61,111 bases of DNA from a virus, in the IMG/VR virus record IMGVR_UViG_3300042444_000090, positions 1 through 61,111 of that record, one strand, 5' to 3'. The notes under the pieces were generated by a model. It worked only from the letters and a program-made list of their open reading frames with translations, ran no database searches and was not told the DNA's origin. The position numbers were made by a program, and so were the translations under genes. Shown one piece after another: positions 10,191-52,245 of the stretch. The first letter of the stretch is position 1; every line of letters starts with the position of its first letter.

Positions 10191-10205
10191 CGTTGAAATG
10201 TTTTC

Positions 10206-11863: not shown

Positions 11864-11928
11864 AATTTTGGTAAGTTTATCCTGAAGGAAACTTTTGGTT
11901 TCCCCCAATATATTTATGAGCCTTTGCA

Positions 11929-28646: not shown

Positions 28647-28956
28647 GGGCTTTGCCTTTGTAGACTGCGATTGTGGCTGCGTGAGAGCGCTTGCGCCGTG
28701 AGTTGGTATATCCAACCTTAACGATGACGCCTTGCTTACAGGCAGTCAGGAAACGAGCGCCCATAGCATTGTGGTGATGCGGTGGATCTCCGCAGAAGTC
28801 ACGGACATCCTCCGCCGTGAATTCGGAACCGTTTGCGGCCATTGATGCGATGACGCCATCGCAAGCCATGACCCATTCGTTGGACGTGTTCTCCGACACT
28901 TTCGCAGCGCCTTCATCGCGTAGCCTGCGACCTTCTGAGTTATCGTATTTATTCAT
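28624..28956 (-). CDS. Conserved early protein upstream of initiator
   Basis: 110 residues. FTAEDVRDFCGDPPHHHNAM and ARFLTACKQGVIVKVGY outline a small winged-helix-like fold, and SRRKRSHAATIAVYKG gives a basic C-terminal strand. I recognise the pattern from phage genes that sit before DUF1376 initiators; DNA binding is plausible. The ATG follows the leader AAATAAATAC directly, and the first codons repeat AATAAATAC. Confidence 0.6.
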   Translation of the reverse strand: MNKYDNSEGRRLRDEGAAKVSENTSNEWVMACDGVIASMAANGSEFTAEDVRDFCGDPPHHHNAMGARFLTACKQGVIVKVGYTNSRRKRSHAATIAVYKGKAHACHVQE

Positions 28957-28960
28957 GTAT

Positions 28961-29977: not shown

Positions 29978-30753
29978 TTCGTAACGGCTGCGATGAACTT
30001 GTCAGGATGCGCCAGAATGCGCTCACGGTAGGAGCCTTCGGGAACATCTTTCCACGTCATGCCTTTGTTGATGACGCCTTTGCTGATGAGGAATTCGTTG
30101 GCGCTGCTGTCATGCTTGCCAATCAAATCCTCCACAGGAGCGTACCAAGGCTTGTCCTCGACAACCTCGACCTCGACAACGCTCACTTCCTCGACCTCAA
30201 CCGTGACGGCATCTTCCTTGTCAGGAGCGCTCGTCACAATATCACGGGGAAGCGACTTGGTTGGCGCGGAGAAGTCTGCAACCTCTTCAGGCGTATACAT
30301 CCCCTGCAAGACTGCGGGGAACACGGAGCGCACCCCCTCGCTGATGACGCGAGCGCGTAGCATCTGACGTGGATAGTTCTTCCAGTTGTCCTTGCCAGCA
30401 ATGCCAGCAGCTTTGGCGCGAGCCATGTCCCAATCGATGCGGAGCACTCCGCCCTGCGGGTGAGAGAATGTCGCTGCGACTTTCTCGTCGGTGTGGTCAT
30501 GCCACTCGACCTTGCCGCCTGCCTGCTGGAAACGCGCCAGCATGGCGTCAGAGCGCAAGGATGCCTTGCCTTGGATGATGTGGTATTCAGAGGCGATGCT
30601 GCCGGGGTGCTTCCCCTCAGCTACCGCCGTGATCATTAACGCCAGCGCCTGATCGACAGTTTTCATGCCGAATAGACCGCTCTTGGCGAATGCGATTGCC
30701 ATGCGCTCCATTTCGGAGACGGACGGCATTTGGACTGCTAGTTCTTTGCTCAT
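29974..30753 (-). CDS. RecT/Red-beta-like single-strand annealing protein
   Basis: 259 residues. YHIIQGKASLRSDAMLARFQ, FSHPQGGVLRIDWDMARAKAAG and WKNYPRQMLRARVISEGVRS are the ordered motifs of a RecT-superfamily branch common in phages. A C-terminal acidic Val/Glu-rich linker (about 180-205) leads to a small helical domain. It anneals complementary ssDNA made by the adjacent nuclease and supports recombination-dependent replication. The ATG follows AAATAAATAC, the same leader as at 28956. Confidence 0.78.
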   Translation of the reverse strand: MSKELAVQMPSVSEMERMAIAFAKSGLFGMKTVDQALALMITAVAEGKHPGSIASEYHIIQGKASLRSDAMLARFQQAGGKVEWHDHTDEKVAATFSHPQGGVLRIDWDMARAKAAGIAGKDNWKNYPRQMLRARVISEGVRSVFPAVLQGMYTPEEVADFSAPTKSLPRDIVTSAPDKEDAVTVEVEEVSVVEVEVVEDKPWYAPVEDLIGKHDSSANEFLISKGVINKGMTWKDVPEGSYRERILAHPDKFIAAVTK

Positions 30754-36046: not shown

Positions 36047-36229
36047 TTAAACCTCCACACCTACGGCTTCTGCCAGTTTATCGATGTTCCCGTTGTCTAG
36101 CTCGTAGGCCAAAGTAGTGACCTCGGTTTCATCGGTTGTTTTCGGATCGTAATAGATCTCGCCGCCATTGTACGGGACTGCCTCCCAACCATCGGGTTTC
36201 TCGTCCCATTCTGAAAGCAGGATGTCCAT
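36047..36229 (-). CDS. Hypothetical 60-aa acidic protein
   Basis: Starts MDILLSEWDEKPDGWEAVPY; acidic, with a possible small beta domain. The ATG overlaps the TAA of the giant gene by one base, so it is probably translated by re-initiation. It has no recognised family. Confidence 0.45.
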   Translation of the reverse strand: MDILLSEWDEKPDGWEAVPYNGGEIYYDPKTTDETEVTTLAYELDNGNIDKLAEAVGVEV

Positions 36230-39200
36230 TAAGGTATCTTAATCTCTGGAAGAGGGGTTTTCAACATCGAACCTACAACGTCATTGTCGCTTACAGCCTT
36301 CCCCTTTTTGGCATTGGCTACAAGCGTTTTATGCTGTTTTTCGTATTTCGGGAACAGCTTCCTAAGATGTGTCGGAGTTTTAATCAGGAAGTTGTTGCCA
36401 TTGGCAGGGCCAATCATCATCCACGGGTAGGAAGGATGGATCTTAAAGTTGGGTTTCTTCAAAAACGCATCTCGCATCTTCTTCTCCGCTGGAGTCATGG
36501 CCGCTTCCTGCTTTGGATTGTTGCCAAAGTATAGAGCAAAAGCCTCAGGATTTGAAGATAGCTGAATTACGGCCACGGCTTGCCCCGTTGTGGCATTGAT
36601 CATGTCTTCAGAATTCTGCAAGGCATTCACTACATTGGGAAGATCGGGAATACCAGAAACTGACTTAGTCGCTTCTCCTCTTGCCGTAAATGAGTAGCCC
36701 AAAAATTCTTGCAGGAAGTTTTTGTTCGATCCCAACTTCAATAAGCGCTTAAACCATGCTTTATTTTTATGCGCGTTGTATACCTTGAGCGCTTCTTTTT
36801 TGGCAGTAGCCATTAGTTTGGGATCATTCTTAGCAACGCGATTCTTGATCGGAGTTAGCGCCCTGTTGAATGCAATGATTGCGTCTTCTTCAGGCGTATT
36901 CTCAGGAGCGGGAATCGGCTTTTCTCCCTTTGCTGCGCGTATCCTGTTCTTCGCCCCGCGCCTTGTAGCGGCTTTGATCTTTTGCGCCCTTAGGTTTCCA
37001 ATCTCCAAAAGGACATGAGCCAGATCTTTTACCCAAGGCTCCAGTTTCCCTGCCTTGTCAAAGGCATCAACTTCTTTGATGTAATCAGTCCCGAAAGCAA
37101 TGTTGGATCGGTGAGCATCATCCGCCATGATTTGCACGATGTGGTATCCATCGTCTACGTAGGGTAGCCTGTTACGCATTGCATTCACTGGCGCAAGCCC
37201 AAGGTTGCCCCAAACGATCTTATATAGAACGCCATCTGGCCCCATTACGGTTTCCTGATTGGACTTGAGGAATTCGTGCATCGGCCCACCCATGTCCTTG
37301 CCAAGGGTGTGATGCCTGTCTGCCTGCACCATCCCAACGCGCTTGCCGCTGATGTCGCTCAGATCTTTGACAACAGGATTAACTACGCGAGTAGGATCTA
37401 TTTTTACAAGGATCTCAGTTCCAGTATCGTCAATCAGGGAAGCGTAGAAAAATCCACGGGCAGGAACCTTCTTCGGAAGTTTGACTACTCCTGTCTTTGT
37501 AATTGTGAAGTCAGCAACTGGAGGATTTTTGCGCTTTGGAAGCATTAAAGGCATTTCCCCTTCTTCAGGCGGCTCAATCTGGCGCGAGATAAATCCGCCG
37601 CCTTCCATTTCGGTCACGTCATTGAACTCAGGGTTCAGCATTTCCGCTATTGCTTTTGCTTCGTCACGTTCTGCCTGTTCCTGTGTTTTTCCCATCGTGC
37701 GTTGATACAGCAGATCCATTGTCTCAGGTTGGATGTCTACAAAGTCAGACAGCACTTCGGCAGCATTGAGAACATCGTTGTTTGCTGAATAGCCGGGGTT
37801 GTATCCTTCTGGAAATGTTCCTGCAGGAGGATGCACTGCGGACATAACATTCGATATATCGACCAATACATCGTCTATTGGCCGCTCCATTCCTTTCGGA
37901 AAGTTCTTTTTCAAGACGTTAAACGGATCGACACGGGAGTCTGTTTTCTTATCCAAGGCAACAATGTCAGGAAGCGATGCGGCAAGATCTGAAAACAGAT
38001 CCATCATATAGCTCATTGCTGTCTTGTTTAGTTCAATGGACTTTGTCAATTCAGCCGATCTTTCTTCGGCATATGGCATTGGAATTTCTCCGCGATTAAG
38101 TTTTTCCAGAAAGTTCTTGTATATACGTTGCAATGTGGACGGCTCAAAATCGTCCAATATTCTGCGAGCAATCGTTGTCAGGTGGAAAGACCTGTCGAAA
38201 CCACCAGAAAATCCTCCACCAAGCGGAGTGTTTACTAAGTCCATAGCATCTATCTCAAAACGATCTTTTCGGAGCAACACGTCATCTTCAGGAAGATCGG
38301 GATCTCTTTCGTAGCGCCTGCTCGGCATGAATTCAGGCTGCGGCCCCGCGCTCGGATCATTTTCGTCTGTCAGACGATCAATTGAATCGACCCACTCAAT
38401 CCATTGCTGCTCGCCATAGCGGCTCTTCATCAGGCTCACAATGGCTTCCTTATTATAGCCGTATTCGATAGCTTTTGTGCCGTTGGCAAAGTTAATGACC
38501 CATCGGGTATTCAAAGAATCGTCCAATAGGCGCTTGCTAGACGGAAGCGTATCAAAATAGGCAGGAGTCGCCTCTTGGCGCATTTCTTCTGCATCTACTT
38601 GCTCTTCTAATGATGGAATAAGCGACTCAAAGCCATTGATACGGAGGGTATTTTCCCAAGCGCCAGCCTTATATTTCGGCCTGTCGGTTCCAACAATGGG
38701 GATTTGAATTTCTTCAAACTGAGCCATTGGCAGATTGTTTTTTTCAAACATCGCCTGCAATTCGGCCTGTGCCTGCTCAAATGTCTTTAGTGGCGGCGGC
38801 ATTAGCAATTTTGAGTCTATTGCCGTATCACCCTCAAAATATAGCTCAGGAGAGAATGCCCCCGTGCCGTCAGCGCCGGGTACAATTCGGATTCTGGCAA
38901 GCCAACTGCCCTTCTTGTCGTTTAGCTCTCCACTGAATCGGACAAATGAAGACGGCTCGCGCTGCGGCATAAACTGAGGCTGGCCCTCTTGTTCAATGCG
39001 AGCAACGGCTTCTGGAGAAAGATCAACTCTCCACATTGGAACAATGCCCTCAATTAGCTGTTTTTGAAAATCTAAAGCCTCTTCAACGGTGTCAAAGCGA
39101 GGACTGATCGGCTTCATGCTATCGTCTCGACTAACCCAAAACTGCTTGTTCGTCTTATTCCATTCGCTTCTGAGTCTAGTGTCAGTAGCCTGCATTCCAT

Positions 39201-42200
39201 ATTCAGGAACCCTTAGAAAGGTATCAACAGCCTTAGCTCCGTAGGGTTTCATGTATTTCCCAATGTCAGAAGGTTGGACTATATCGTAGTAGCCCTTCAT
39301 TCCTTCTCCGCCAATCGTCATGTCCGCTTCGGTAATGCTTTGCTGGTTGCCTGTTGCGTTTTCTATAATTTGAGAGGCCATTTTTTTGCCAACGATTTCG
39401 TTGAGCTTAACTTCAGCGGGACGATTTCCTTCTGCAGCTTCTCCGCGAACCTCTTCTAAAATGTCATTTATCCGCCCTTCTCCACCAATAACAACCCCAT
39501 CGCTTTTACGGACAATGGCCTTGCCAATCATTCCCGGCGTTTGAAGAACATCAACATCTTCTCCCGGTTCTCCTGATTGATCATAGAGCGGATCTCCCTT
39601 GTAGAAGAACACATCTATTTTGTTTTCGCCCGTCTGGTAATAGCTGATGCCGTCAATAATTTGACGCATCATATCCTGATAGCGCTCAACTTGGGTGACG
39701 CCTTTCGTCCATCCAATCCACTCAATGCCATTCGCGGCTACTGGTTTATTAGGAATAGCCTGTATCGCTTGCAACGCTTCGGGGCTGCTATACCCGTAAG
39801 CGTCTTTATAACGATTAGCTCTCTCAACTGCCGCATCAAATTCTTCTCTGCGAATTGCCTCATCAGCGCTTACAGCTTTCTCTAACACTCGTTTGAAAAG
39901 TTGCGTTCCCCAATCGCGCTTGAACGGCATATCGGGAATTCCCGCAAAATCGCCATCTTCGGCTTCCTGCTTTAGAACGGCATCTTCCACAAGGTTTGCG
40001 GCCATTTGGCCTATGGTCATCTTTTGAAGATCACCAGAATATGGATCCATCGCTTCTGTTTCCGTAGTGTCTTCAAGCATTTGTTTCACGGCTTTTTTGA
40101 TTGCTTCGGCTTCCATGCTGTCAGCCTGCATTCTTAGTTCGTGATATGGATCGCTTGTATCCATCAACGGGCTAGATTCGATATCACGCTGAACTTGTTC
40201 GATGGTTTTTTTGCCAGCCTCTCGGCTTTGCTTTCCAAGCAGCGATACGTAAATGTTCTCTAGTCTCCATCTGCTTAGTGTATCTATCAATTTAACTGGA
40301 TCTTCTTCACGCCAACCGTAGTCGCGACCTTTTTGCGCTCTGTCCGATTGGAACTCTTCAATCATTATGCCCAAGCGGCCATTTTCATCGTAACGGTATT
40401 TGTACCTGACATGACCCAAATAGCCGGGGATTTGCTTATAATGTCCTGAACGAAATTCTTTTAGCGGCTTTCCCTCGCGATTCGTGCGCGGAGTCATGGT
40501 CAAAACCATTTCATAATATCCATCTCCACCAGCAAGCGTAAGTGATCCAGTATTATATCGATTTCCTCCATCAACAATTAACAATTCTGGTCTATTCGCT
40601 TTGATATGCTCCATCAAAAGATCCTTACTGACTTTGCCCCCGCCCTGAGTAGCGAGCTTATTAATTACATTAATGGCATCGCTGAACAGAACTTCATCTT
40701 CCCTGATTTTATTAGGGGAATTCCAATTGACCCTAACCTTTACGCCTTCGGTAGCCCGTGAACGTGCCGCTGCTTCTGCTATGGCTTTTTGATCTGCTGG
40801 AACTCTTGCAATGACGGATGTTTTATTATTCTCGTCAGTTTCCGTGACAATATACTCTCCAAGCATGGCCTTGGCTTGCTCTGGCGTCACATACTTACCC
40901 TGAATTTTGCTATTTAGCGTCCTTTCAAGCTGACTATAGAAGCCCCGCTCGCTTGTTGGTTCTTTCATTTCCCTGCGCGGCATGAATGTCGGCAAGCTGT
41001 TCGTGTTTACGGCATCAACAAGCGCTGGTGTGATCGGGAATATCCAGCCTTCATCGGCATCTATGTAGTCGATATTTTCCTGTTTCTGAGCCTCTCCAAC
41101 AGCTTTCTCAAGCGTCTTGTACTCGGCTACAGCTTGGTCTGGCATTGTTGGGTCTGCAGGGTCTTTGGGATCTTTCATCCCAACGTATACCAAGTCTCCC
41201 CTGCCCATGTTTTGCGGCTTCGGAATTTGGAATGGAAATACTTTGCTTCCGTATTTTTTTAGGAACTTATTGACCTCATTGACGGCAATTTCATCGTAGT
41301 AAGGCTTGAATTTCAAACCGCCAAAAAATGTCGATCCGCGCTTTGGTTTGATGGTGTTGCTTATCCCGTTTTTGGCATTGTTAAGGATTTCATCTGCCAT
41401 TGACTTCGGAATGATTTTGTCGAGAGCCTTACCTTGGAAATCATAACTCCCCATGCCCGGAGACATCTCAGCAAAAATGACTTCTTTGCTGTTAGGATCG
41501 ACGGTCAAATATGCATAGACCCCACTAGACGGATACAGCAAAACTTGAACCTGTCCCGAATCATCGATGCCTTTATATTCGACCTTTTCAAGAGGAGCCA
41601 TATCGCGCCAGCGCTTGGCTTGGGTTTTTCCGCCTGACCAGTAGACGTATTTTTGTTCGTTCTTAACGGCATCTACAATTTGGTTTTTAATCAAAGCTAA
41701 GCCCCATTCACGGCTCTGACTAAATGGAGCTTCAGGAGGGGCTTCCCTGTTTACTGGAACGGGATCTCCCGCCTCAACACGCAATTTAATGGTCGGTTCA
41801 GGGAGGTTGCTAACATCTAAAACCCCTCCAACCATTGGCAGCTTAGTTCCAGATTGTTTTGCAGACTGTCCCGCAAGAAATCTCTTCATATTGGGATCTG
41901 TTCCATAGCTCCCAAAATATTCGTCTAGATATTGCTCGGCATCTTCGCGTCTATCAAAATCTTGTTTCAAAGTAATGTCAGGGCCGTCATCAACATTTAG
42001 AATCACCTTGTAAGAGTTAGTATACTGGCGATACCCAATTGGATTGCCCTGACCATCTTTTCTGCGAGCGGCCTGATTTCTGTCGCTCTGCATTTCGTGG
42101 ATATGGCTAATCGGAACAAGATGGCTGAATCCAGTTCCTCCATATGCTCGCATTGCAACGTCAGGAGATCTGAAGTCCCAACCCTTATACGTCAAATAAA

Positions 42201-45200
42201 AGTCTGCTTCTTGGCGATTTATGATGTCGTTTTTGACAGCTTCTGCCACAACATGAAGAGGAATTCCAGATTTGGCGTCCCATTCAGCAAATTCAGGATC
42301 AGGCGTGTATATTGTTTTTAGCGCCGATTCGATCTGTGGTATTGTCCGCAGTGTCGGATCAACAATCATGCGGTCACCTACGCGCATATGGGCTATATAG
42401 TACGGATAGCTTTCGTAATGTGTTTCAGTGAATTCTAGACCTTCTGCTCGTCCGCGATTGCTTATTTGAAAGTCTAATGCCTGCTCTCTAGAAAGATTGC
42501 GAGCAACCTTCTCCGCCATTGCTTTTGTATCGTAGTAAGCGCCGACAGGAGCATCTGTATTTGGGAAAACCCTGTCTCCCTGCTCAAAGACAACTTCGTA
42601 TTTTCCTGCTCCAGAAAGCGCGTCTTTTGGCCTTTTCCTGACTGTATACTTTACAACTTCAAGTTTTGGACGGACTTGCAGAATTTTTTCTCTGTAATTT
42701 GTATCACCAAGGATTCGGTATTCGCCGTATTGAGTAGTAGGACGATCCCGATATCCACCAATTGCTTGCGGCCAATATTGTTTAAGACCAAGTTCATTCA
42801 CATTATAAATGCGCTGCGTTGGATCTTTTACCATGCCATTGATGCGCCAGTAAGCCTGAGAACGCTTTTCCTCGGATGCAATTTGCTGATCTAGCTCAAG
42901 AAGATTGATCTCGCTTTCGTCCATTGCCAAATCGCGCTTGCGGACAGCTTCATCCAGCTTACGCATTGCCTTGGCAGTAGCCAAATCTTTGTCCTTTGCA
43001 GCCTCTAGCTCTCTGCTGGCAGCTTCGCGCTCGGCCATATACTCGTCATTGATACGTTGCCAATCCTTGTCAGCAATCTGATCACGTTTAGACTGTATTT
43101 GCTGCGCTCGCTCATCTGCTGCTTCTGCAGTCAGGCGCGACCAACGCTCTGCTTCTTCTACTCCAAAATCATCAATGCCTTGTATGGCTTTCAGAAGCGC
43201 ATACTTATCAAGATTGAATCCCTGATCGGCCAACTCTCCCAACACTTCTGTTTTGATAAATCCGCTAGGTTGGCGAATCCTTGCTCTTTTAAGCGCTGAT
43301 TGGGCCTCTTGCTCAGAAAGATAATATGGGAAACGAGCAACTGCGGGACTAGGACTCCAGATGTTTCCAGCTTCATCATAGATCCCCCAAGATCCAGTGG
43401 CGGGATCTTGATTGACCGTGTAGTTGCCAACTAGGTCGGGAATGCGGTTGCGAGCTTCTTGGTCAAGATTCAAATACTGCGAAAACAAAGTCTCTAATTT
43501 AGAAGCCAAACGCTTGCCTGCAGGGGCCATGTTTTTCCATGAAATGGCGCGTTCTCCAGAATCTTGTCCACCAAGAACGCTAAGCATGAATTTGACGTTA
43601 TTCTGGCGGAGGTACTCCATCAGATCGGCTTTATTCACGTTCTTGCCGTCATTACTCAGCGTATCTATGGCCTCGTTAATTTTGCTCCATTCAATTTCGG
43701 AAGGCTTAATTCCATTTTGCGGATTGTTGATGATAGCTTTAACCTGTTCGATTGTTGCTGATTTGCCTTGAATCTTCTCATCTAGCGCTCCCTCAAGCCT
43801 GCTGTTGAAACCGGGGTACACGCGCTCGTCAATGGTCATTTCCCGCCTTGGCCGCATGGGCATGAACGCAGCAGCTTCTCGGAGATCGCGGAGAGACTGC
43901 AGTTCACTTGTGTAGTCCTGACCGTAGGCTTCAGCAAATTGATCGCCAAGCGACCTCTCTTCGTCTTCAAGAATCCTAAGGCGCTCGCGCTGCTCAGAAG
44001 TCATGCGGAATCCCTCTTTTGGCAAGGTTTCTGGCTGGCGAATACCGCCATCGCGTTGAGGCATAAAGTTGGCTTTTGCCAAGCCATAGGCCACAGGCAT
44101 TTTCGGCAAGGATGTTGGAGCGATTTGCGCGATGTGATCAATGCGGACGGACATAATCGTCCTGTCCATATTCAGATCGCGGGGATCTCCTTTTCTGCGA
44201 GGAACCTTTGTCCGATCAGGATTCGCTCCTTCTGTAGATGTGTCAAATAAGTTAAGAAAATCGTTAAAGACGTTTCTCTTCATGGCCGCTACTTGCGGAT
44301 CTGCATCAAGCGGCTTTGCATTAGGGCCAGCAATTTGTCCGCTTTCGGTATATCCACTGCCGGGCAATCCCTGCTGCCAGTTATTGAGGTAACTCTGAGT
44401 AAACTCGTTCCAGAATTGTTCTTTGCTGCCCTTCCAAGGCATCAAACGCGCAGGCATCCTGTCGCCCCATGCATGAAGTTTATCAAACATTCGACCTACT
44501 GAAATCGCCGTGAAAAGGAAGTTTCCAGCCTTGGACATCATCAATCCAATCGGAACAAGATCATAATACTTCGGTGAAAAGGCTTCATATTCGCCCTTTT
44601 CATTCATCATCGCGGCATAATTGATCAAGTACCTTGATCCATCGTTGCGAACCAACGAGTCATTGATATTTAGAATAACGTCCTTGATGCTTTTCGGTAG
44701 AATTGTTTCGGGCAGGCTTTTAATAGCTTCAACCTGTAAGGGGCTTAGAGTTCCACGATATGTATCGCCGCCTTCTTTGGTAGGATCAAAACGATTGGGA
44801 GCGCCATAGTCAGGGGTATCTAGTGCCTCCTGAATGATTTTATTGCGCTGCTTTAGAATCCGTTTCGCTTCTTTGGGTTGATGGAACTTAGGCGTTACCC
44901 CGTCTGGCTGCATCGCAATCTGCCTTGCGACAATAATCTTGCTGCCTACTGGAATGCCTTGGATGTTAACCTCTGCAGACAGTGGCCCGTATCCATTGCT
45001 TTGCTGTACTCCAGCATCAGTAATATCCCAAGAGCCTTCGTAGACCATTGTCCCTGACAACGCCTGTGGAGCGCCAATCGCTTTTCCATCAGGCCCAATA
45101 ATTTGTGCCTGAACTTCAGTAACTGGCAGCGGACTGTATGTTCCAAACGTCTCTAAAAGCGCTTTGTTTTTGACCAGTTCAGACCGTGTAATTCTAGGAG

Positions 45201-48200
45201 CCTGCTTGCCTTTTACTGCAGGACTGATCTGCCCCTGCAAATCAATCATGGCTTCCAACGCTTCACGTGCCAGCAACTGAACTTCGGGAGTGAATCTTGC
45301 CCCGCTATTGTCTGAAATAACGTCCTGCGAGTCAGGAATATTAAGAAGACGCTTCATGGCAGACAGCTTCTTCGATAGGGTTTCAAACTTTGCTCTCTTA
45401 AATGCTAAGTTAGCCTTGTCAAAAATGACCTGAATGGCAGGAGTGGGAGCCTTTCCAAAAACTCGGCTCATGCTGTCAGCGGCCAAGTCTGCCGTAATTT
45501 CTTCACGCAGTTTGGCTGCTGCCTCTTTTTGATTGATTAGAACTTGGCCTGTTTGTGGATCTCTTAATACTTGTCCACTAACTGGATCGCGTTGCGCGAC
45601 AGAATTCAGGAAAAATTCAGGGTTTACGGCAGTTCCTGCGTATACATTCACGTAAAGATCGGCCAATTCTGATTCGGTCAGCCCCTCGCCAACTTCGGCA
45701 ATTACCTGACCATCGGCATTTTTGATCTGTTCCTTGAAAAGAATACGATATGGCTCAGCCATCAACTGCTGGTACTCAGGAATTTTGCTTAAATGGTGTC
45801 CCGCCTCATGCCTTAGCGCCGTCAAAGGATCTTGACCACTATTAATGCGGCGAATAACAGCATCTGTATTGATGACCATCGTCGGTTTGGCGTCATCCAT
45901 GACAATCTTAGGCCCACGAAACTGAGGAATGCCGCCAGAAATGACAGTGTCATCTATTGTTCCATCATAAAATCCATCCTGCTCTGCGTATGCATCAAGT
46001 TGAGCATCAGAAGCGTCAGGATATTTAGCGCGTAGATGGTCTTTAATTTGTTGGCTGCTCAACAAACGAATGCCCACGTTATTCTGACCACGAACAAATC
46101 CGCCGTTAGCCTGATTGTGAATTCCTGCGAGCGTTAGCAGATATTGCCTTCCAAATTCATTGCGCGTTTGGACGTTTGCTCGTTTCATGCGCTCCAGCGC
46201 ACGTTGGTTATTCGCCAAATTTTTCTGTGCCACCTCCGCAAGCTGAGGATTATTGCTTGCAGCAGCAGCTTGAGCAGCTTGAGCGGCACGATCAACGCGC
46301 TGTTGCTGGTTGTTGATGACAACTTGCCAATCTGTCATGGCATCCACATTGCCTCGGTCAGTGGGATTAAGATCTTGGTAAGCCTTCCAAGCGTCTGAAT
46401 CTTCTTTGCGCCTGCGCCGTGCATCGTAAACGGGATCATCCATCCCGAAAACCTTGTTCATCAGGCGCGTTTGTGTGCGACCTAAGCTAGACCACAGCAA
46501 ACCCTGACCCAACATCGCGGCCATTTCTTCAGAATCTTGAGAGTCCGCAATGCCAACGGCCAATCCAACGAGAGTCGGCTCAACGCCTGCACGAATATAC
46601 TCTCTGGTATTGTCAATAATGCTGTCTAAGCGCTTGCCACCAGAAGCTGTTAGCCTGTCGCTCAAGCCGCCCTTAATCGGCGTTGCTTTAATCGGCTCTC
46701 CGCCTTCTGCCCTAGGAGCACCTTTGCCTGCCTGACGGTCACGGCGGAGCTTAGACATCGTTTCAAATGTTCCAGCCTGACCTCCAGCGGATAGGCGCTT
46801 CGCCTCATAGTAGTTTCGGATGAATTCAGGGGTAGATTTAAGCATCCTCGCTCCGATCAATCCCCCGATAACTCCCAAAGGTGAATCAGGCTCTAGGCCA
46901 TAGCCAATGCCAGCGCCAGCCACATATGGTGAAACTTGACGAACCTTCTTAAAGAAGTTGCTTCTATCAATGGCCTCTTGCGCCCGTTTAAGAGATTCGT
47001 CTACCGCAACAGCAGTTTTTTCTCTTTTCGTTACACGTTGAGACTTGTCGAATGTTGCCGCCTGTTTTGAGCGCAGCTTTTGGGCATCTTCGGCCAAAAT
47101 CCGATTCACTTCATCGGGGGTTTTCCCACGGAATCTCAGGTAGCTCGCAACCTTGGGTGTCGCATATGACCCCAATTTGAGCAAATTCATGCCGTAGCCA
47201 ACCGCATCCAATCCGAATCCCTCTGGCAGAAGGATCTCGCCAGCGGTCATAATGTCCTGATCCATCTCAGGAATCAGTTTTTTGGCTTCCGCGATGGCTT
47301 CAAGACCTCCAACCGTCATGGCCTCTAAGTCGCCTTCACGCGCAGTAATGGCTTGCTCGCGGGTATATCCATAATCCCGCATATAGTCTTCGACAGTTCC
47401 AATACTAGACGTAGCAACAGCATTCACTGCAGGCGCAATAAAGTCCAAATACCTGTGGTAAGCCGTTGGATTGAGCGATTCAAACTCGTATGCCGCCCCT
47501 TCATAGTTCTTGCGAGCTTTCCAGCGCTCAAAACTTGTATCGTAGCTGTTTAGGCCAACGCTTTCGCTCAAAAGATCCCATCCCTCAACCCCGCCAGCAC
47601 CCATTTTCTGACCAAGTTTGGCAAGTTGGTAGGGAAGGTCTACGGCAGGAGAAACAAAGGCCATAGGCGCTGCTTTAGCCCTGTCGGTGACATCCTGCTG
47701 CGTTTTAAGGATCTCTTGCTGCTGCTCAGGAGTGTATTCCTGCAAAACTAGATCAAGATACTCTTTGCCAGTAAATTCAACGCCACCACCCGTGTATCCC
47801 GCTTGAGGATAATACTCGCCAATGCGCTCGTTTACGCGCTCCCGTGCGCGGACAGGAAGCTGAGAGTGAAGCTGCCATGCAAGATTGTAGTCCTTGCCAG
47901 TAATCTCGCCCAAAGCGACATCTCTGACGCCTTTTGCAACGCCTTTTCCAACGCCAACAAGCGTTTCCCCAAACATGACTGCCATGTCGATTGGGAATTT
48001 GCCAACAGCGCCCCCAAGATTTAGCCACTCCTGAGAGTTTTTAGGGATGCGCCAAGCGCTATTTGAGCGAATATAGTCATATACCTCGCGCTCTTGCTTG
48101 GCGTTTAGAGGCATATCGGGACGCAATTTGACAGCTTCTGCCAGTTCTTCAGTGCTTAAAGAGTCCCGCAGATCCATCAAGTTGGCGTCCATTTCAGAGC

Positions 48201-48657
48201 CAGCCTGATCAGCGGAAAGTCTTAGAAAAATATCTAGCGGTTTGGTTGAAACTTCTTCTTTCGGCTCTTCTGCCTTTGGCTGCGTAATGATTTCAGGAGC
48301 CTTAGTTGGCTCTTCCTGCTTGAACGGAAGCATCCACGCCTTCCAATCTTTGGCAGGAGCGCTGATCTCAGCGCCTCGCGTCATTTGCTCAATCGTAACG
48401 GGCTTCCCTGCCTCTACTTTAGGAGGTTCTGGATTAGGAGGAAGCTGAGGGGCGGGTTCTGCTTTGGCTGCTTCGGTCAAAGGCTCAGGAACAGCACCTT
48501 TTTCGGCTACAACAGGAGGAAGCGCCATGCGCTCACGCTCAACAACATCTTCAGCCTCTGCCAGAATTTGATCAGCGGGTGTAAGAGGGGGTTTTTGACC
48601 CTCTTCTGCATCTAGCGCCTCTTGCGCTTCCCGCAGGATGTCTTCAGCAGTAGCCAT
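36229..48657 (-). CDS. Giant polyvalent virion protein with zincin domain (4142 aa)
   Basis: A single uninterrupted frame of 12.4 kb, a fifth of the genome. Pro/Glu-rich N-terminus; membrane-active-looking Gly/hydrophobic segments near residues 220-250 and 570-620; a metalloprotease motif HEAGHH (residues 950-955). Then a module occurs twice: MxxRREM start, GF-x-S-x-LE, KIQGK, a QSDR motif (2190 and 2771), a W-x2-G-x-TQ-x2-R[WY] motif (W2340 and W2983) and a YYD...KY/F...YG motif (Y2453 and Y3123). FMPxR linkers stand at 1531, 1598, 2558, 3229 and 3443. QSD, WTxGxxQ and YYD blocks are typical of phage large polyvalent proteins, which are packaged and injected to disarm host defences. The C-terminal ~450 residues are a separate helical region with HHTLGKDMGG. 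Confidence 0.8.
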   Translation of the reverse strand: MATAEDILREAQEALDAEEGQKPPLTPADQILAEAEDVVERERMALPPVVAEKGAVPEPLTEAAKAEPAPQLPPNPEPPKVEAGKPVTIEQMTRGAEISAPAKDWKAWMLPFKQEEPTKAPEIITQPKAEEPKEEVSTKPLDIFLRLSADQAGSEMDANLMDLRDSLSTEELAEAVKLRPDMPLNAKQEREVYDYIRSNSAWRIPKNSQEWLNLGGAVGKFPIDMAVMFGETLVGVGKGVAKGVRDVALGEITGKDYNLAWQLHSQLPVRARERVNERIGEYYPQAGYTGGGVEFTGKEYLDLVLQEYTPEQQQEILKTQQDVTDRAKAAPMAFVSPAVDLPYQLAKLGQKMGAGGVEGWDLLSESVGLNSYDTSFERWKARKNYEGAAYEFESLNPTAYHRYLDFIAPAVNAVATSSIGTVEDYMRDYGYTREQAITAREGDLEAMTVGGLEAIAEAKKLIPEMDQDIMTAGEILLPEGFGLDAVGYGMNLLKLGSYATPKVASYLRFRGKTPDEVNRILAEDAQKLRSKQAATFDKSQRVTKREKTAVAVDESLKRAQEAIDRSNFFKKVRQVSPYVAGAGIGYGLEPDSPLGVIGGLIGARMLKSTPEFIRNYYEAKRLSAGGQAGTFETMSKLRRDRQAGKGAPRAEGGEPIKATPIKGGLSDRLTASGGKRLDSIIDNTREYIRAGVEPTLVGLAVGIADSQDSEEMAAMLGQGLLWSSLGRTQTRLMNKVFGMDDPVYDARRRRKEDSDAWKAYQDLNPTDRGNVDAMTDWQVVINNQQQRVDRAAQAAQAAAASNNPQLAEVAQKNLANNQRALERMKRANVQTRNEFGRQYLLTLAGIHNQANGGFVRGQNNVGIRLLSSQQIKDHLRAKYPDASDAQLDAYAEQDGFYDGTIDDTVISGGIPQFRGPKIVMDDAKPTMVINTDAVIRRINSGQDPLTALRHEAGHHLSKIPEYQQLMAEPYRILFKEQIKNADGQVIAEVGEGLTESELADLYVNVYAGTAVNPEFFLNSVAQRDPVSGQVLRDPQTGQVLINQKEAAAKLREEITADLAADSMSRVFGKAPTPAIQVIFDKANLAFKRAKFETLSKKLSAMKRLLNIPDSQDVISDNSGARFTPEVQLLAREALEAMIDLQGQISPAVKGKQAPRITRSELVKNKALLETFGTYSPLPVTEVQAQIIGPDGKAIGAPQALSGTMVYEGSWDITDAGVQQSNGYGPLSAEVNIQGIPVGSKIIVARQIAMQPDGVTPKFHQPKEAKRILKQRNKIIQEALDTPDYGAPNRFDPTKEGGDTYRGTLSPLQVEAIKSLPETILPKSIKDVILNINDSLVRNDGSRYLINYAAMMNEKGEYEAFSPKYYDLVPIGLMMSKAGNFLFTAISVGRMFDKLHAWGDRMPARLMPWKGSKEQFWNEFTQSYLNNWQQGLPGSGYTESGQIAGPNAKPLDADPQVAAMKRNVFNDFLNLFDTSTEGANPDRTKVPRRKGDPRDLNMDRTIMSVRIDHIAQIAPTSLPKMPVAYGLAKANFMPQRDGGIRQPETLPKEGFRMTSEQRERLRILEDEERSLGDQFAEAYGQDYTSELQSLRDLREAAAFMPMRPRREMTIDERVYPGFNSRLEGALDEKIQGKSATIEQVKAIINNPQNGIKPSEIEWSKINEAIDTLSNDGKNVNKADLMEYLRQNNVKFMLSVLGGQDSGERAISWKNMAPAGKRLASKLETLFSQYLNLDQEARNRIPDLVGNYTVNQDPATGSWGIYDEAGNIWSPSPAVARFPYYLSEQEAQSALKRARIRQPSGFIKTEVLGELADQGFNLDKYALLKAIQGIDDFGVEEAERWSRLTAEAADERAQQIQSKRDQIADKDWQRINDEYMAEREAASRELEAAKDKDLATAKAMRKLDEAVRKRDLAMDESEINLLELDQQIASEEKRSQAYWRINGMVKDPTQRIYNVNELGLKQYWPQAIGGYRDRPTTQYGEYRILGDTNYREKILQVRPKLEVVKYTVRKRPKDALSGAGKYEVVFEQGDRVFPNTDAPVGAYYDTKAMAEKVARNLSREQALDFQISNRGRAEGLEFTETHYESYPYYIAHMRVGDRMIVDPTLRTIPQIESALKTIYTPDPEFAEWDAKSGIPLHVVAEAVKNDIINRQEADFYLTYKGWDFRSPDVAMRAYGGTGFSHLVPISHIHEMQSDRNQAARRKDGQGNPIGYRQYTNSYKVILNVDDGPDITLKQDFDRREDAEQYLDEYFGSYGTDPNMKRFLAGQSAKQSGTKLPMVGGVLDVSNLPEPTIKLRVEAGDPVPVNREAPPEAPFSQSREWGLALIKNQIVDAVKNEQKYVYWSGGKTQAKRWRDMAPLEKVEYKGIDDSGQVQVLLYPSSGVYAYLTVDPNSKEVIFAEMSPGMGSYDFQGKALDKIIPKSMADEILNNAKNGISNTIKPKRGSTFFGGLKFKPYYDEIAVNEVNKFLKKYGSKVFPFQIPKPQNMGRGDLVYVGMKDPKDPADPTMPDQAVAEYKTLEKAVGEAQKQENIDYIDADEGWIFPITPALVDAVNTNSLPTFMPRREMKEPTSERGFYSQLERTLNSKIQGKYVTPEQAKAMLGEYIVTETDENNKTSVIARVPADQKAIAEAAARSRATEGVKVRVNWNSPNKIREDEVLFSDAINVINKLATQGGGKVSKDLLMEHIKANRPELLIVDGGNRYNTGSLTLAGGDGYYEMVLTMTPRTNREGKPLKEFRSGHYKQIPGYLGHVRYKYRYDENGRLGIMIEEFQSDRAQKGRDYGWREEDPVKLIDTLSRWRLENIYVSLLGKQSREAGKKTIEQVQRDIESSPLMDTSDPYHELRMQADSMEAEAIKKAVKQMLEDTTETEAMDPYSGDLQKMTIGQMAANLVEDAVLKQEAEDGDFAGIPDMPFKRDWGTQLFKRVLEKAVSADEAIRREEFDAAVERANRYKDAYGYSSPEALQAIQAIPNKPVAANGIEWIGWTKGVTQVERYQDMMRQIIDGISYYQTGENKIDVFFYKGDPLYDQSGEPGEDVDVLQTPGMIGKAIVRKSDGVVIGGEGRINDILEEVRGEAAEGNRPAEVKLNEIVGKKMASQIIENATGNQQSITEADMTIGGEGMKGYYDIVQPSDIGKYMKPYGAKAVDTFLRVPEYGMQATDTRLRSEWNKTNKQFWVSRDDSMKPISPRFDTVEEALDFQKQLIEGIVPMWRVDLSPEAVARIEQEGQPQFMPQREPSSFVRFSGELNDKKGSWLARIRIVPGADGTGAFSPELYFEGDTAIDSKLLMPPPLKTFEQAQAELQAMFEKNNLPMAQFEEIQIPIVGTDRPKYKAGAWENTLRINGFESLIPSLEEQVDAEEMRQEATPAYFDTLPSSKRLLDDSLNTRWVINFANGTKAIEYGYNKEAIVSLMKSRYGEQQWIEWVDSIDRLTDENDPSAGPQPEFMPSRRYERDPDLPEDDVLLRKDRFEIDAMDLVNTPLGGGFSGGFDRSFHLTTIARRILDDFEPSTLQRIYKNFLEKLNRGEIPMPYAEERSAELTKSIELNKTAMSYMMDLFSDLAASLPDIVALDKKTDSRVDPFNVLKKNFPKGMERPIDDVLVDISNVMSAVHPPAGTFPEGYNPGYSANNDVLNAAEVLSDFVDIQPETMDLLYQRTMGKTQEQAERDEAKAIAEMLNPEFNDVTEMEGGGFISRQIEPPEEGEMPLMLPKRKNPPVADFTITKTGVVKLPKKVPARGFFYASLIDDTGTEILVKIDPTRVVNPVVKDLSDISGKRVGMVQADRHHTLGKDMGGPMHEFLKSNQETVMGPDGVLYKIVWGNLGLAPVNAMRNRLPYVDDGYHIVQIMADDAHRSNIAFGTDYIKEVDAFDKAGKLEPWVKDLAHVLLEIGNLRAQKIKAATRRGAKNRIRAAKGEKPIPAPENTPEEDAIIAFNRALTPIKNRVAKNDPKLMATAKKEALKVYNAHKNKAWFKRLLKLGSNKNFLQEFLGYSFTARGEATKSVSGIPDLPNVVNALQNSEDMINATTGQAVAVIQLSSNPEAFALYFGNNPKQEAAMTPAEKKMRDAFLKKPNFKIHPSYPWMMIGPANGNNFLIKTPTHLRKLFPKYEKQHKTLVANAKKGKAVSDNDVVGSMLKTPLPEIKIP

Positions 48658-48658
48658 G

Positions 48659-50425
48659 TTAGTCTACAGCAATAGCGGATTCCATTTCTGCTTCTAGAAC
48701 TTTCTTTTGCGCCAACAACTTTTTCAGTTCATCGAACTTTGCGTTGTATTCATCAGTTCCTTTGGTCAGTCCTGTCATTTCGACAACTTTTGCTCGTACT
48801 TGTGATTCAATATCCCCAAGCGGATCGGGGGTTTTCAGGTCAATTGCCACCATTTCTGGACGCGCTCCAGATTGTTCAGCAAGACGCTTATAAATGTTGG
48901 TAAGCTGATTCTGACCACGTTGTCTCTCCATAAAAAGAGACTTGCCCTGTTTGACAAAGTTTTTTCTCTGATCGGGGGCAAGCCTTCCGCCAGTAAGCAG
49001 TCGATTATATTCCGCTCTGATGCGGTCAGGAACGCCTGCCGCATTCTGAGCGTTTGCAAACTCTTGTTCTCGGACAACACTGCCGGGGTCTAGCAGCTTC
49101 ATAAAGCTGAAGATCATCGCAAGATCTCCCGCTCCCTCGCCACCAGACTCTGCCATACGCGAAGCACTTTTGATGTTAGCCCATGCATTTTGAACCACCA
49201 TGTAGTCCTTGGATGACGCAATAAACTCCTTACGCAGCTTTTGTTCCGCATCTGTATCAGCGCCAGCGGTAGTTGCAGGCTTTTCTGCTTCGGCTCTTGC
49301 CTTACCAACTTCAAGTCTGGCTTTTTCAAGGGCTAGGCGCTCAGCTTCCGTTTGCGGAGCTTTGGGCTTCGGCGGCATGACTTCAAAATAAGTTTCACCA
49401 GTTGGGTCATCCACCCTAGGAACAACTTCTGGACGCTCGTAATTCTCAGGCATTGGCATTTCTGCCACTCGTCGCGCCTGATCATAATTCGCGTACGCTC
49501 CCGGCTCAAATCCAGCGGGAAACTCCGTTGTTGGAGGAGCCATTTGGGCCAACGGCGCTCCCGCCGTGCTAGGAGTAAGATCACGAACCCCCTGCTGCAA
49601 TTCTTGCATTTGGCGAGCAGTTTCAGAGGGGATATAAGCGATATTAATCTGTCCAGCTAAGTCGGTAAGCGGCAGTCCCATTGCGCTTGCAGGAAGAGCC
49701 TGCGGTGCTCCGCCAGCTTGAGCAGCAGCAAATTGTGCAGCCTGCTCAGGGTTAATCCGCATCGCTCCAGCGGGAATAACATCGCTTCCTACTGGCAATA
49801 CGGGCGGAGGCGTCAGATTAAAAAGCGATCCCTCCCCTTGGACAGCAGGCAAATCCTCCTCGTCTTTTGTTGGAAGATCTGGCTCAACGGGAGGAATATC
49901 TCGTAGGTCTTCATTAAGATTTGGCTCAAGTGGGTCGGTTCCGTCGAAACTTTCTTCATCTTCAATGTCTCCGCCACCGCGATAAGGCGCTGTAGAGGGT
50001 TCGCCAATCATGCGGCGGGGGGGCTTTTTATTTGCCCCAACTTCCTGAAGGCGTTGTGCTGCAGATTCGCGCAAATACTGAATGCGTTTTTGCACGGCAT
50101 CTGAAGAACGGGCAGACTTAATCTGTTCAATATCTAGCGCCCTGCTGTGCTTTCTTTCTTCTGCAGCCACAGCCCGTTCTTGCTCAACATTGCTCATGTA
50201 AGCCTGCAATCCCGCTGCTCCAAGAGCCTGAAGAGCGCCATACGCAGCAGTAGCGGGAGCTTCTGGATTCTCGTCTCCAATCGCATATGCCCCTGCCACG
50301 TCTCTTGTAAAATCATTTTGAGTGACTACAGGTGTAAATGGAGAAAGACCCTCCAAAGCAGAAGTTATTTTTGACTGCTTAGGGGTAAATGAATATCCCG
50401 CTGTTTCTGACATTGGCGCTGCCAT
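48659..50425 (-). CDS. Internal virion/ejection protein with conserved LDPGSVVRE domain
   Basis: 588 residues. The C-terminal third has FMKLLDPGSVVREQEFANAQ followed by a helical NRLLTGGRLAPDQRKNF segment, a domain that recurs in internal virion and DNA-transfer proteins of many podovirus-like phages. The first 150 residues are helical and charged; the middle is Pro/Gly/Ala-rich and disordered. A Shine-Dalgarno site GGAGGAT, formed by the last codons of the upstream gene, precedes the ATG. It is encoded directly before the giant protein, so the two may be ejected together. Confidence 0.7.
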   Translation of the reverse strand: MAAPMSETAGYSFTPKQSKITSALEGLSPFTPVVTQNDFTRDVAGAYAIGDENPEAPATAAYGALQALGAAGLQAYMSNVEQERAVAAEERKHSRALDIEQIKSARSSDAVQKRIQYLRESAAQRLQEVGANKKPPRRMIGEPSTAPYRGGGDIEDEESFDGTDPLEPNLNEDLRDIPPVEPDLPTKDEEDLPAVQGEGSLFNLTPPPVLPVGSDVIPAGAMRINPEQAAQFAAAQAGGAPQALPASAMGLPLTDLAGQINIAYIPSETARQMQELQQGVRDLTPSTAGAPLAQMAPPTTEFPAGFEPGAYANYDQARRVAEMPMPENYERPEVVPRVDDPTGETYFEVMPPKPKAPQTEAERLALEKARLEVGKARAEAEKPATTAGADTDAEQKLRKEFIASSKDYMVVQNAWANIKSASRMAESGGEGAGDLAMIFSFMKLLDPGSVVREQEFANAQNAAGVPDRIRAEYNRLLTGGRLAPDQRKNFVKQGKSLFMERQRGQNQLTNIYKRLAEQSGARPEMVAIDLKTPDPLGDIESQVRAKVVEMTGLTKGTDEYNAKFDELKKLLAQKKVLEAEMESAIAVD

Positions 50426-50428
50426 ATT

Positions 50429-51160
50429 TTATCCTCCGCCGTAAGTTAGATTTTGAGATGAAATGTTGAACCGATTACTTCTGGCATTTCTTCCGCCAGA
50501 TTCTTGATTGATAGCTGCAGCAGCAACGGCAGGGGCGACATTGCTAGGAGCCATATAAGGAGTGGCCCCTGCAAGAGAACCCCCGCCTGCTCCTCCAACA
50601 TTAGAAAGAGCCTGAAGACGTGCCGCATTAATATCGAATCCCCCGCCCACGTTCCCCACCGATGTGTTCGCTAAAGCGTATTTCTGACCCGCAGCGGAAT
50701 CTGCGGCCACTTGTGCAGCATTCATTGCGCTCAATCGTCCACTTGCTCTTTGAATAGAAGCATTTTGCGCTGCTGTTGCCGATTGGTTTTCTGCAGCAAT
50801 TGCCGCATCTCGTTGACGCTTAGCTTCGGCCTCAGCAGCCGCTTTTTTTTCTGCATCAAGTTTTGCCTGAAGCGCTTTAATAGCTTTATCGTTTTCTGCC
50901 TGTTGTGCCGCTGATGTCCCTCCGACAACTGTTACGGTTGGACGCTGCGGATTTACAATACTATTAACCGCTCTTCCAACGCCCCCAAATGCATTGCCAA
51001 CTGCTCTTCCTGCAGAACTAACCGCTCCTGTAACGCCTCTCCAAGCGTTACTAATTGCGCGGCCAAGACTCCATCCACCTAAAAGCAAAAGCCATTCGGG
51101 ACGTTCTGGAGAAAACGCAAGACAAACAGTATTGATGATAAAATCAACAATGCCGTGCAT
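50429..51160 (-). CDS. Ala/Gln-rich internal protein, paralogue 3 (with TM-like N-terminus)
   Basis: 243 residues. Unlike its two paralogues it starts with a hydrophobic stretch (residues 5-35) and a Gly-rich amphipathic region (AVSSAGRAVGNAFGGVGRAV) that could insert in membranes. Then follow the shared parts: an Ala/Lys/Gln coiled coil (AKRQRDAAIAAENQSA), the motif GGGFDINAARLQALSNVGGA, a variable linker and a C-terminal NRFN ... LTYGGG. The SD for the next gene is built from its last codons. Probably an ejected or tail-internal protein. Confidence 0.6.
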   Translation of the reverse strand: MHGIVDFIINTVCLAFSPERPEWLLLLGGWSLGRAISNAWRGVTGAVSSAGRAVGNAFGGVGRAVNSIVNPQRPTVTVVGGTSAAQQAENDKAIKALQAKLDAEKKAAAEAEAKRQRDAAIAAENQSATAAQNASIQRASGRLSAMNAAQVAADSAAGQKYALANTSVGNVGGGFDINAARLQALSNVGGAGGGSLAGATPYMAPSNVAPAVAAAAINQESGGRNARSNRFNISSQNLTYGGG

Positions 51161-51161
51161 A

Positions 51162-51707
51162 TTATGCTCCTCCGAATGTCAGATTTTGTGCTTGCGGCAA
51201 TCCGAAACGATTTTGCGGAGCATTTGTTCCGCCTGCTTGTGCATTGGCGGCAATCAGACCCTGAGGAACTCCCATCGGAACAGCGCCACCTGAAGCTGCA
51301 GGGCCAGACGCATATGGCAACGCAGCCGCAGCGCCTGCACCAGCAACATTGCCAAGAGCCTGCATTTTAGCGGCGTTGATATCGAATCCTCCGCCGCCAC
51401 CCAATCCAGATGTCGCCATACTTTGACGTTGTGCCGCTTGCGTGTCTTGCAATTGTTGTGAAGCCTGCAGTCCGCTCAGTGAGCGTTGTGCCTGTTGAAC
51501 AGAAGTAAGCTGTTGGCCTCGCGCCTGATCATCCTCGGCTTGAATTTTGATTTGCCGTTGACGCTCTGCTTCAGCTTTGGCAGCAGCAGCAGCCGCCGCT
51601 GCTTGTTGCGCCCTTAGCTGATTCATCATCTGCTCCATTCTGTTGTCTACTTGCGGCATACCAGTTACCGCTCTCGTTCCCCCGCCTCTTCGTCCCATGC
51701 CGCCCAT
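51162..51707 (-). CDS. Ala/Gln-rich internal protein, paralogue 2
   Basis: 181 residues from ATG 51707, placed 6 bases after GGAGGAG in the end of the preceding gene. Gly/Arg-rich start, coiled coil (AAAAKAEAERQRQIKIQAED), GGGGFDINAAKMQALGNVAG, then a Gly/Ala-rich part ending NRFGLPQAQNLTFGGA. Same architecture as 50429..51160 and 51709..52245, indicating tandem gene duplication. Confidence 0.6.
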   Translation of the reverse strand: MGGMGRRGGGTRAVTGMPQVDNRMEQMMNQLRAQQAAAAAAAAKAEAERQRQIKIQAEDDQARGQQLTSVQQAQRSLSGLQASQQLQDTQAAQRQSMATSGLGGGGGFDINAAKMQALGNVAGAGAAAALPYASGPAASGGAVPMGVPQGLIAANAQAGGTNAPQNRFGLPQAQNLTFGGA

Positions 51708-51708
51708 A

Positions 51709-52245
51709 TTATGCTCCTCCAAAGGTTAGTTTTTGTGCGTTTGGCAAGGTAAATACATTCGATTTTTGAGTGCTTCCACCAGTGCCAGTGTTAAGTGATT
51801 CGGCAGTAGTCAACGCTGGATTAATTAGCGCTGGATTTGCCGCGAGATTCGCAGCCGTCGAGGGGAGCGTAGTGGAAGCAGCACCCAAGTTAGCCAAAGC
51901 GGCATTCCTAGAAGCGTTGATATCAAATCCTCCGCCCGTTGCCGCCATTCCCGCAGCTTCTTGCTCTTGTTTATACCTGTTGAGCGCTGCTTGATCAGCC
52001 AAACCCTGTGTAGCTTGCATTCTGCTAAGTGTATCAGCAGCGCTCTGCGTCGATTGCTGCATCCTTTGTTCGGCGCTGCGATCTTCTGCGGCAATTGCAG
52101 CTTCCCGTTGTGCTTTTGCAGCAGCAGCAGCAGCTTCTTTAGCTGCAGCAATTTGCTGTTGCATCATTTGTTGCATCATAGCCGCTGAATTGTCAGCAGG
52201 CATTGAATAAGTGATGTTTCCACCACCTCCGAATAGTCCTCCCAT
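51709..52245 (-). CDS. Ala/Gln-rich internal protein, paralogue 1
   Basis: 178 residues. Starts MGGLFGGGGNITYSMPADNS, then a Met/Gln and Ala-rich helix (AAAKAQREAAIAAEDRSAEQ), ATGGGFDINASRNAALANLG, and a C-terminus NVFTLPNAQKLTFGGA. GGAGGAT Shine-Dalgarno site upstream. First of the tandem triplicate in transcription order. Function unknown; location suggests a virion-internal or tail-tip role. Confidence 0.6.
   Translation of the reverse strand: MGGLFGGGGNITYSMPADNSAAMMQQMMQQQIAAAKEAAAAAAKAQREAAIAAEDRSAEQRMQQSTQSAADTLSRMQATQGLADQAALNRYKQEQEAAGMAATGGGFDINASRNAALANLGAASTTLPSTAANLAANPALINPALTTAESLNTGTGGSTQKSNVFTLPNAQKLTFGGA

What the first reader, a model, noticed from the sequence alone, without database searches (positions are those of the whole stretch)
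36229..48657. 4142-residue polyvalent giant protein with a zincin motif
A single 12.4-kb frame takes a fifth of the genome. It combines membrane-active-looking N-terminal segments, HEAGHH at residues 950-955 and QSDR/WTxGxxQ/YYD modules typical of large polyvalent proteins. Such proteins are thought to be packaged and injected to counter host defences. Here it would be one of very few effectors of the phage, and the only one large enough to hold many activities.
Basis: partly seen in the sequence, partly recalled or inferred. Interest (0 to 1): 0.8.

Follow-up and report, generated by a model that had tools for sequence, protein, structure and literature searches.

The report
Giant phage protein built from cassettes
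A fifth of this phage's genome codes for one enormous protein, probably injected into the host with the DNA, in which relatives keep a constant head and tail but swap the enzyme-like modules in between, mostly at a short repeated 'F-M/L-P-x-R' tag that may be where the chain is cut.

Summary
In detail: one uninterrupted 4142-residue ORF, on the minus strand (48657..36229), with HEAGHH at 950-955 and two QSDR modules. No Pfam model matches it, but IMG/VR relatives explain it. Four lineages share a constant head (residues 1-1534, with the only HExxH plus an invariant downstream Glu) and mostly a constant ~430-residue tail. Between lie exchangeable cassettes: two QSDR/QSDW modules here; a GNAT plus three ADP-ribosyltransferase stretches (PF18760, E=9e-18) in relative L006. 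Nearly every cassette ends in a tag, [FY][ML]Px[RKEDS]. The tag is ~100-fold over shuffles in the window protein; 17 of 26 homology breakpoints lie within 15 residues of one (1.9 expected); its second residue switches (M to L) between two lineages at 4 of 5 shared boundaries. The preceding gene resembles a P22-type ejection protein, so the giant sits in the gp16 slot. Best reading: an injected polyvalent protein of a new cassette-and-tag architecture; cleavage at tags by the zincin-like head is plausible but unshown. The zincin fold was not confirmed (poor model). The QSDW module is a widespread family (593 confirmed loci in a capped scan) without a Pfam model, with a weak GNAT-like fold match.

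The parts
36229..48657 (-). Giant ORF, 4142 aa (P0001)
   Evidence: orthologues
44056..48657 (-). M0, constant head (res 1-1534): disordered N-terminus, glycine-rich segments, zincin-like region, conserved KAGN region
   Evidence: conserved in all four lineages
45796..45810 (-). HExxH (res 950-954), putative zinc site
   Evidence: H950, E951, H954 invariant in 12 aligned sequences
45499..45501 (-). E1053, putative third zinc ligand
   Evidence: invariant in 12 aligned sequences; in a predicted helix
44053..44067 (-). Tag 1 FMPQR (res 1531-1535), end of M0
43852..44055 (-). M1, 68-residue segment
43852..43866 (-). Tag 2 FMPMR (res 1598-1602)
40972..43851 (-). M2, first (diverged) QSDW-family module, res 1603-2562
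40972..40986 (-). Tag 3 FMPRR (res 2558-2562)
38959..40971 (-). M3, second QSDW-family module, res 2563-3233
   Evidence: AF2 pLDDT 85.4, pTM 0.82
38959..38973 (-). Tag 4 FMPQR (res 3229-3233)
38317..38958 (-). M4, conserved module of unknown function, res 3234-3447
   Evidence: 63% identical in L006
38317..38331 (-). Tag 5 FMPSR (res 3443-3447)
37531..38316 (-). M5, conserved module of unknown function, res 3448-3709
   Evidence: 68-71% identical in L006
37531..37545 (-). Tag 6, variant MLPKR (res 3705-3709)
   Evidence: FLPKR in L002, L004 and L006
36232..37530 (-). M6, constant tail, res 3710-4142
   Evidence: 92% identical in L006; detected in lineages C and D
48659..50425 (-). 588-aa gene upstream: P22 gp20-like ejection protein
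   Evidence: tblastn to SEN22, Kapi1, Mx8, CRP-901; orthologues before the giant in lineages B and D

Best explanation
This is the terminal ejection protein of a podovirus-like phage, occupying the slot that P22 gp16 occupies after a gp20-like gene, that has become a polyvalent cassette protein. A constant zincin-like head (M0) and a constant tail (M6) frame exchangeable enzyme-like modules. It is probably packaged in the head and injected with the DNA (inferred from context). Modules are gained, lost and swapped at a short [FY][ML]Px[RKEDS] tag that ends nearly every module (shown by comparison of four lineages). Most likely the tag is an exposed processing site, cut by the protein's own metallopeptidase-like head or by another protease, so that the chain is released as separate effectors before packaging or after entry (inferred, roughly 40-50% for cleavage of any kind). 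The effector modules here are two QSDW-family domains, probably enzymes because of their invariant polar residues, possibly GNAT-like in fold; in relatives they are replaced by or combined with ADP-ribosyltransferases and a GNAT, which suggests covalent modification of host targets.
For: Relatives and constant head and tail. Cassette swap: L006 lacks M2 and M3 and has GNAT plus three ART-PolyVal stretches instead; other ART cassettes in lineages C and D. Tag count 5 versus 0.05 in shuffles; it is the most repeated 4-position motif in W, L002 and L006 and joint top in L003; synonymous codons vary, so the peptide is conserved. Breakpoints: 17 of 26 within 15 residues of a tag, 1.9 expected, 0 of 20,000 randomisations reached it. 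M-to-L switch at the M0, M1, M2 and M4 ends between lineages A and B. HExxH and Glu invariant. Gp20-like neighbour and gene order. The tag ends the M3 model at low confidence (last block pLDDT 52), as expected of a flexible junction. QSDW family membership E=2e-62. Analogy: the 4515-aa giant of the 61-kb podovirus JC1 also follows a virion-associated gene and is in the virion by mass spectrometry.
Against: No direct evidence of cleavage, packaging or injection. The zincin AF2 model is poor (pLDDT 56) and gave no protease match; no PDB or Pfam zincin match and PF18818 absent. No sequence similarity of M0 to gp16-position proteins. The pre-M6 boundary is L-type in both lineages A and B, and some C-lineage boundaries are imperfect (FMPDV, FKPAQ). 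GNAT similarity of QSDW is weak (Foldseek best E 0.037, low TM) and absent by sequence. N4 vRNAP, also with an MPTase domain, is packaged unprocessed (Iyer 2017).
Confidence: 0.6

Rival explanations
1. The tag is not a cleavage site but a structural or evolutionary linker: a flexible hinge that lets modules fold separately or thread one by one through the tail, and that tolerates recombination joints.
For: Flexible at the end of M3; breakpoints cluster there; N4 vRNAP is ejected unprocessed (Iyer 2017).
Against: A hinge does not need a fixed F-[ML]-P-x-R peptide with varying codons, nor a residue switched together at four unrelated boundaries.
Confidence: 0.35
2. The tag is a cut site for another protease (host, or a phage head-maturation protease), and the HExxH head is itself an effector or a remnant.
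For: P1 DarA is cut by the trans-acting head protease Pro (PMC12810830); Iyer 2017 also lists MPTases acting on host proteins.
Against: No head-maturation protease was recognised among the structural genes searched, though most had no match; HExxH and Glu stay invariant while the rest of the head diverges to about 31% identity.
Confidence: 0.15
3. The giant is mainly structural: a scaffold or ejectosome protein whose modules have no effector function.
For: Gp16-like position next to a gp20-like gene; unknown modules M4 and M5 are well conserved.
Against: Exchange of catalytic families (ART, GNAT) inside one framework and invariant polar residues in QSDW modules suit effectors, not scaffolds.
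Confidence: 0.12

Closest known systems
Polyvalent proteins of phages and conjugative elements (Iyer et al. 2017, PMC5512222)
   Same: Very large, multidomain, probably injected; zincin-like HExxH plus Glu; ART-PolyVal and GNAT domains in relatives; processing by the MPTase was proposed there.
   Different: The window protein matches no Pfam polyvalent model; constant head and tail with swapped middle; a repeated boundary tag, which I did not find in the sections of that paper I read.
DarB-like giant of Bcep22-like podoviruses (JC1 gp69, 4515 aa, PMC9144972)
   Same: Phage of about 61 kb, giant taking about a fifth of the genome, following a roughly 500-aa virion-associated gene; found in virions by mass spectrometry.
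   Different: No helicase or methylase domain found here; no tblastn match of the window giant to any INPHARED phage.
P22-type ejection proteins gp7-gp20-gp16 (SEN22 gene order)
   Same: The preceding gene is gp20-like and the giant has the gp16 position.
   Different: Six times longer and no sequence similarity to gp16-position proteins.
PLxRFG / tail-700 giants (NCBIfam NF032893)
   Same: Giant phage proteins that can also carry a QSDW module (L084).
   Different: The tail-700 domain is absent from the window giant and from L118 and L122.
Polymorphic toxin systems
   Same: Constant delivery part plus exchangeable effector cassettes, from general knowledge and the abstract listed.
   Different: Here several cassettes sit in series inside one injected phage protein between constant ends; no immunity genes were looked for.

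Membership tests
Polyvalent protein (Iyer 2017) | Several domains of disparate activity in one polypeptide | tested here: met
   Met directly in relatives of the same protein (L006: GNAT plus ART-PolyVal; L118 ART plus QSDW). In the window protein itself: two QSDW modules plus zincin signature; activities unknown.
Polyvalent protein (Iyer 2017) | Match of the window protein to a curated polyvalent-domain model | tested here: not met
   No Pfam family at E<=1 for the whole protein; only weak chance-level matches per module.
Polyvalent protein (Iyer 2017) | Delivered into the host with the DNA | not testable with these tools
   Context only: gp20-like neighbour.
Zincin-like metallopeptidase | HExxH plus downstream Glu ligand, conserved | tested here: met
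   H950, E951, H954, E1053 invariant in 12 sequences of four lineages.
Zincin-like metallopeptidase | Zincin fold | tested here: inconclusive
   Model pLDDT 56 overall, 70-84 over most of the region, with HExxH and Glu in helices after short strands; no protease among the listed Foldseek matches.
MPTase-PolyVal PF18818 | Match to the Pfam model | tested here: not met
   No match in G000 or relatives; the model rang only below its cut-off in controls.
QSDW module family (unnamed) | EE[IF]QSD, W[TS]xGxxQ, GG..MK.[FY]YD, GxPxF ending | tested here: met
   HMM of 77 loci hits W with E=2e-62, both modules.
GNAT acetyltransferase (for the QSDW module) | GNAT fold | tested here: inconclusive
   The first 29 Foldseek PDB matches are GNATs or proteins with a GNAT-like domain, but E 0.04-0.75 with low TM; no sequence support.
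P22 gp16 ejection protein | Sequence homology to gp16 | tested here: not met
   hhalign of the M0 profile to four gp16-position proteins: probabilities below 1%.
DarB-like antirestriction protein | Methylase-helicase domains | tested here: not met
   No helicase or methylase Pfam match.
PLxRFG / tail-700 | NF032893 match | tested here: not met

The most novel reading that the evidence does not exclude
A phage polyprotein: the constant zincin head recognises and cuts the lineage-specific [FY][ML]P tag at every module boundary, releasing separate effectors in the host, and the shared tag makes modules interchangeable between phages, a plug-in system for injected effectors in which tag and protease co-evolve.
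Probability: 0.33. Interest if true: 0.82.

Novelty: new variant of a known kind. Interest (0 to 1): 0.62.

Why it matters
It has been proposed since 2017 that polyvalent proteins are processed by their own metallopeptidase domain, but I found no described cut site. The tag gives concrete, mutable candidate sites and a matched protease candidate in one chain, plus natural variation (M versus L, R versus E/D) to test specificity. It also shows how effectors are exchanged between phages, and it flags a common phage domain (593 confirmed loci in a capped scan) that still has no Pfam model.

Tried and rejected
tblastn of both halves of the giant against INPHARED: nothing. M0 of lineage C against INPHARED: nothing. 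PF18857 and PF18818 in the genome: nothing. PDB profile searches for QSDW and M0: nothing useful. Zincin fold by AF2: poor model, so the Foldseek matches are not interpreted. GNAT homology of QSDW by hhalign against four GNAT-like proteins: no. M0 against gp16-position proteins: no. Other polyvalent giants re-using their own boundary tripeptide: only a modest excess (27 versus 15.6; LFSR three times in L077), not enough to generalise. The DNA form of the tag also occurs once in the 708-aa structural protein, with the same FMPER-type sequence in lineages A and B alike, taken as unrelated. Prophage relatives in GTDB genomes: none by this pattern scan. Selection bias noted: L103 was found with an RNFMPAE pattern, so its first tag is not independent evidence; L119-L125 came by homology to M0.

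Full report
OBSERVATION. The ORF of 4142 codons exists, but on the minus strand, 48657 down to 36229. It starts one base after the stop of the 588-aa gene upstream. HEAGHH is at 950-955 and is the only HExxH; QSDR is at 2190 and 2770. The window is an IMG/VR virus record of 61,111 bases.

RELATIVES. Pfam, PHROGs and NCBIfam say nothing useful about the protein, and INPHARED has no relative. IMG/VR has: L002 (4269 aa), L003 (4137 aa), L006 (3740 aa) and partial ones, then L098 and, through L103, a wider set L118-L125. I group them as A (window, L001-L005), B (L006, L098), C (L118-L121) and D (L122-L125).

ARCHITECTURE. All lineages keep the head M0 (E 1e-80 to 1e-134 for its two main segments in C and D) and, where the C-terminus was seen, almost all keep the tail M6 (not detected in L124, where an unlike C-terminus follows the last tag). 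The middle differs. The window has M1, M2, M3, M4, M5. L006 has M4, M5, then a GNAT-like module and three ADP-ribosyltransferase stretches (PF18760, E=9e-18), with no M2 or M3, and its M6 is 92% identical to the window's although the heads are 41-42% identical. L118 has a QSDW module and an ART; L121, L122 and L124 have ART or other modules. This is cassette exchange within a fixed frame.

THE TAG. Nearly every module ends in [FY][ML]P followed by a variable residue and usually R or K (lineages A, B, D) or E/D/S (C): window 1531, 1598, 2558, 3229, 3443 and, as MLPKR, 3705. In shuffled sequences F[ML]P.R is expected 0.05 times; it is seen 5, 6, 5 and 7 times in the window, L002, L003 and L006. 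It was the most repeated 4-position motif in an unbiased count for the window, L002 and L006, and joint first in L003. Codons at the tag vary, so conservation is of the peptide. Ends of homology blocks between relatives fall on tags: L118 and L120 agree up to ...RNFMP and then differ; the L118/L121 tail block restarts at RFMPSS; the window and L006 end at FMPQR/FLPRR and restart at MLPKR/FLPKR. In all, 17 of 26 block ends are within 15 residues of a tag against 1.9 expected under random placement (0 of 20,000 trials); several pairs share history, so the effective number is smaller. Most of the misses are changes inside cassettes. Between lineages A and B the second tag residue is M versus L at the ends of M0, M1, M2 and M4, and L in both before M6.

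ZINCIN. H950, E951, H954 and E1053 are invariant in an alignment of 12 sequences from four lineages at about 31% identity; the two residues between E951 and H954 vary (AG, FG, TS, DA), which is what a metal site, not mere kinship, would give. Short strands precede the HExxH helix, and E1053 is in a later helix, in line with the MPTase description in Iyer 2017. But the model is poor and Foldseek gave nothing. The fold is therefore likely, not shown.

QSDW MODULES. An HMM from 77 loci finds both modules (window E=2e-62). No Pfam family is shared by more than 3 of 64 members and no PDB chain matches. Invariant residues in 64 sequences include H177, R189, E205, E206, Q208, S209, D210, Q213 and D563 of M3, typical of an enzyme. 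AF2 of M3 is good (pLDDT 85.4, pTM 0.82). Its first PDB matches are GNAT acetyltransferases or proteins with a GNAT-like domain, but at E 0.04-0.75 with low TM scores, and sequence gives no support, so 'GNAT-like' is a lead. In BFVD the matches (E down to 1e-16) are uncultured phage proteins, some named ART-PolyVal-like or large polyvalent protein.

CONTEXT. The 588-aa gene just upstream matches in its C-terminal part (residues 392-528) virion proteins of Mx8, CRP-901 and MW202867 and, weakly (E=3e-4), the P22-like ejection protein of SEN22 'released from the phage upon host infection'. In those phages the next gene is another ejection or virion protein, or a large protein of unknown role; here it is the giant. 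Lineages B and D have the same neighbour. Podovirus JC1 (61,182 bp) has a comparable order, a 510-aa virion protein followed by a 4515-aa DarB-like giant found in virions by 51 peptides. There is no sequence homology between M0 and gp16-position proteins.

MECHANISM. Shown: constant head and (mostly) tail, exchangeable modules, tag at boundaries, exchange at tags, HExxH plus Glu signature, ejection-gene context. Inferred: packaging and injection; enzymatic action of modules on host targets; cleavage at tags. For cleavage speak the fixed peptide with varying codons at ends of unrelated modules, the lineage-wise switch, and the resident protease signature. P1 DarA shows that an injected anti-restriction protein can be cut by a trans-acting head protease, and N4 vRNAP that an MPTase-bearing giant can be packaged whole. 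I put cleavage of any kind at 40-50%, and by the own zincin at about 33%.

VERDICT. The finding is sound and its polyvalent reading is largely right, by way of relatives. What is new is the cassette frame with a lineage-specific boundary tag, and a widespread unmodelled domain family. It is a new variant of a known kind.

Noticed in passing
window 50429-51160, 51162-51722, 51709-52245 (minus): Three consecutive Ala/Gln-rich small proteins look paralogous and share a C-terminus like QNLTFGG (NLTYGGG, NLTFGGA, KLTFGGA); a similar ending QNLTFKN is seen upstream of the giant in L103. Perhaps gp7-like internal virion proteins with a common sorting end.
   Followed up: no
window 56851-60336 (minus): 1161-aa protein whose middle (about 460-785) matches phage baseplate and virion structural families, with unlike flanks; looks like a virion protein with a large repetitive insertion.
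   Followed up: no
window 27209-30753 (minus): DnaC-like helicase loader, exonuclease and RecT-like annealing protein: a lambda-type recombination set that could drive the cassette exchange.
   Followed up: no
L077 res 2021, 2130, 2448; L043: Unrelated polyvalent giants may have their own boundary tag (LFSR three times in L077, FQA in L043); overall excess modest.
   Followed up: partly
L084 (4317 aa): A giant with a QSDW module and a C-terminal tail-700/PLxRFG domain (NF032893, E=4e-221), linking the QSDW family to a second class of giants.
   Followed up: no
window 9465-11929 (minus): Two weak glycosyltransferase matches (PF01075 E=0.0013; phrog_2456 E=0.0023) next to tail-fibre genes.
   Followed up: no
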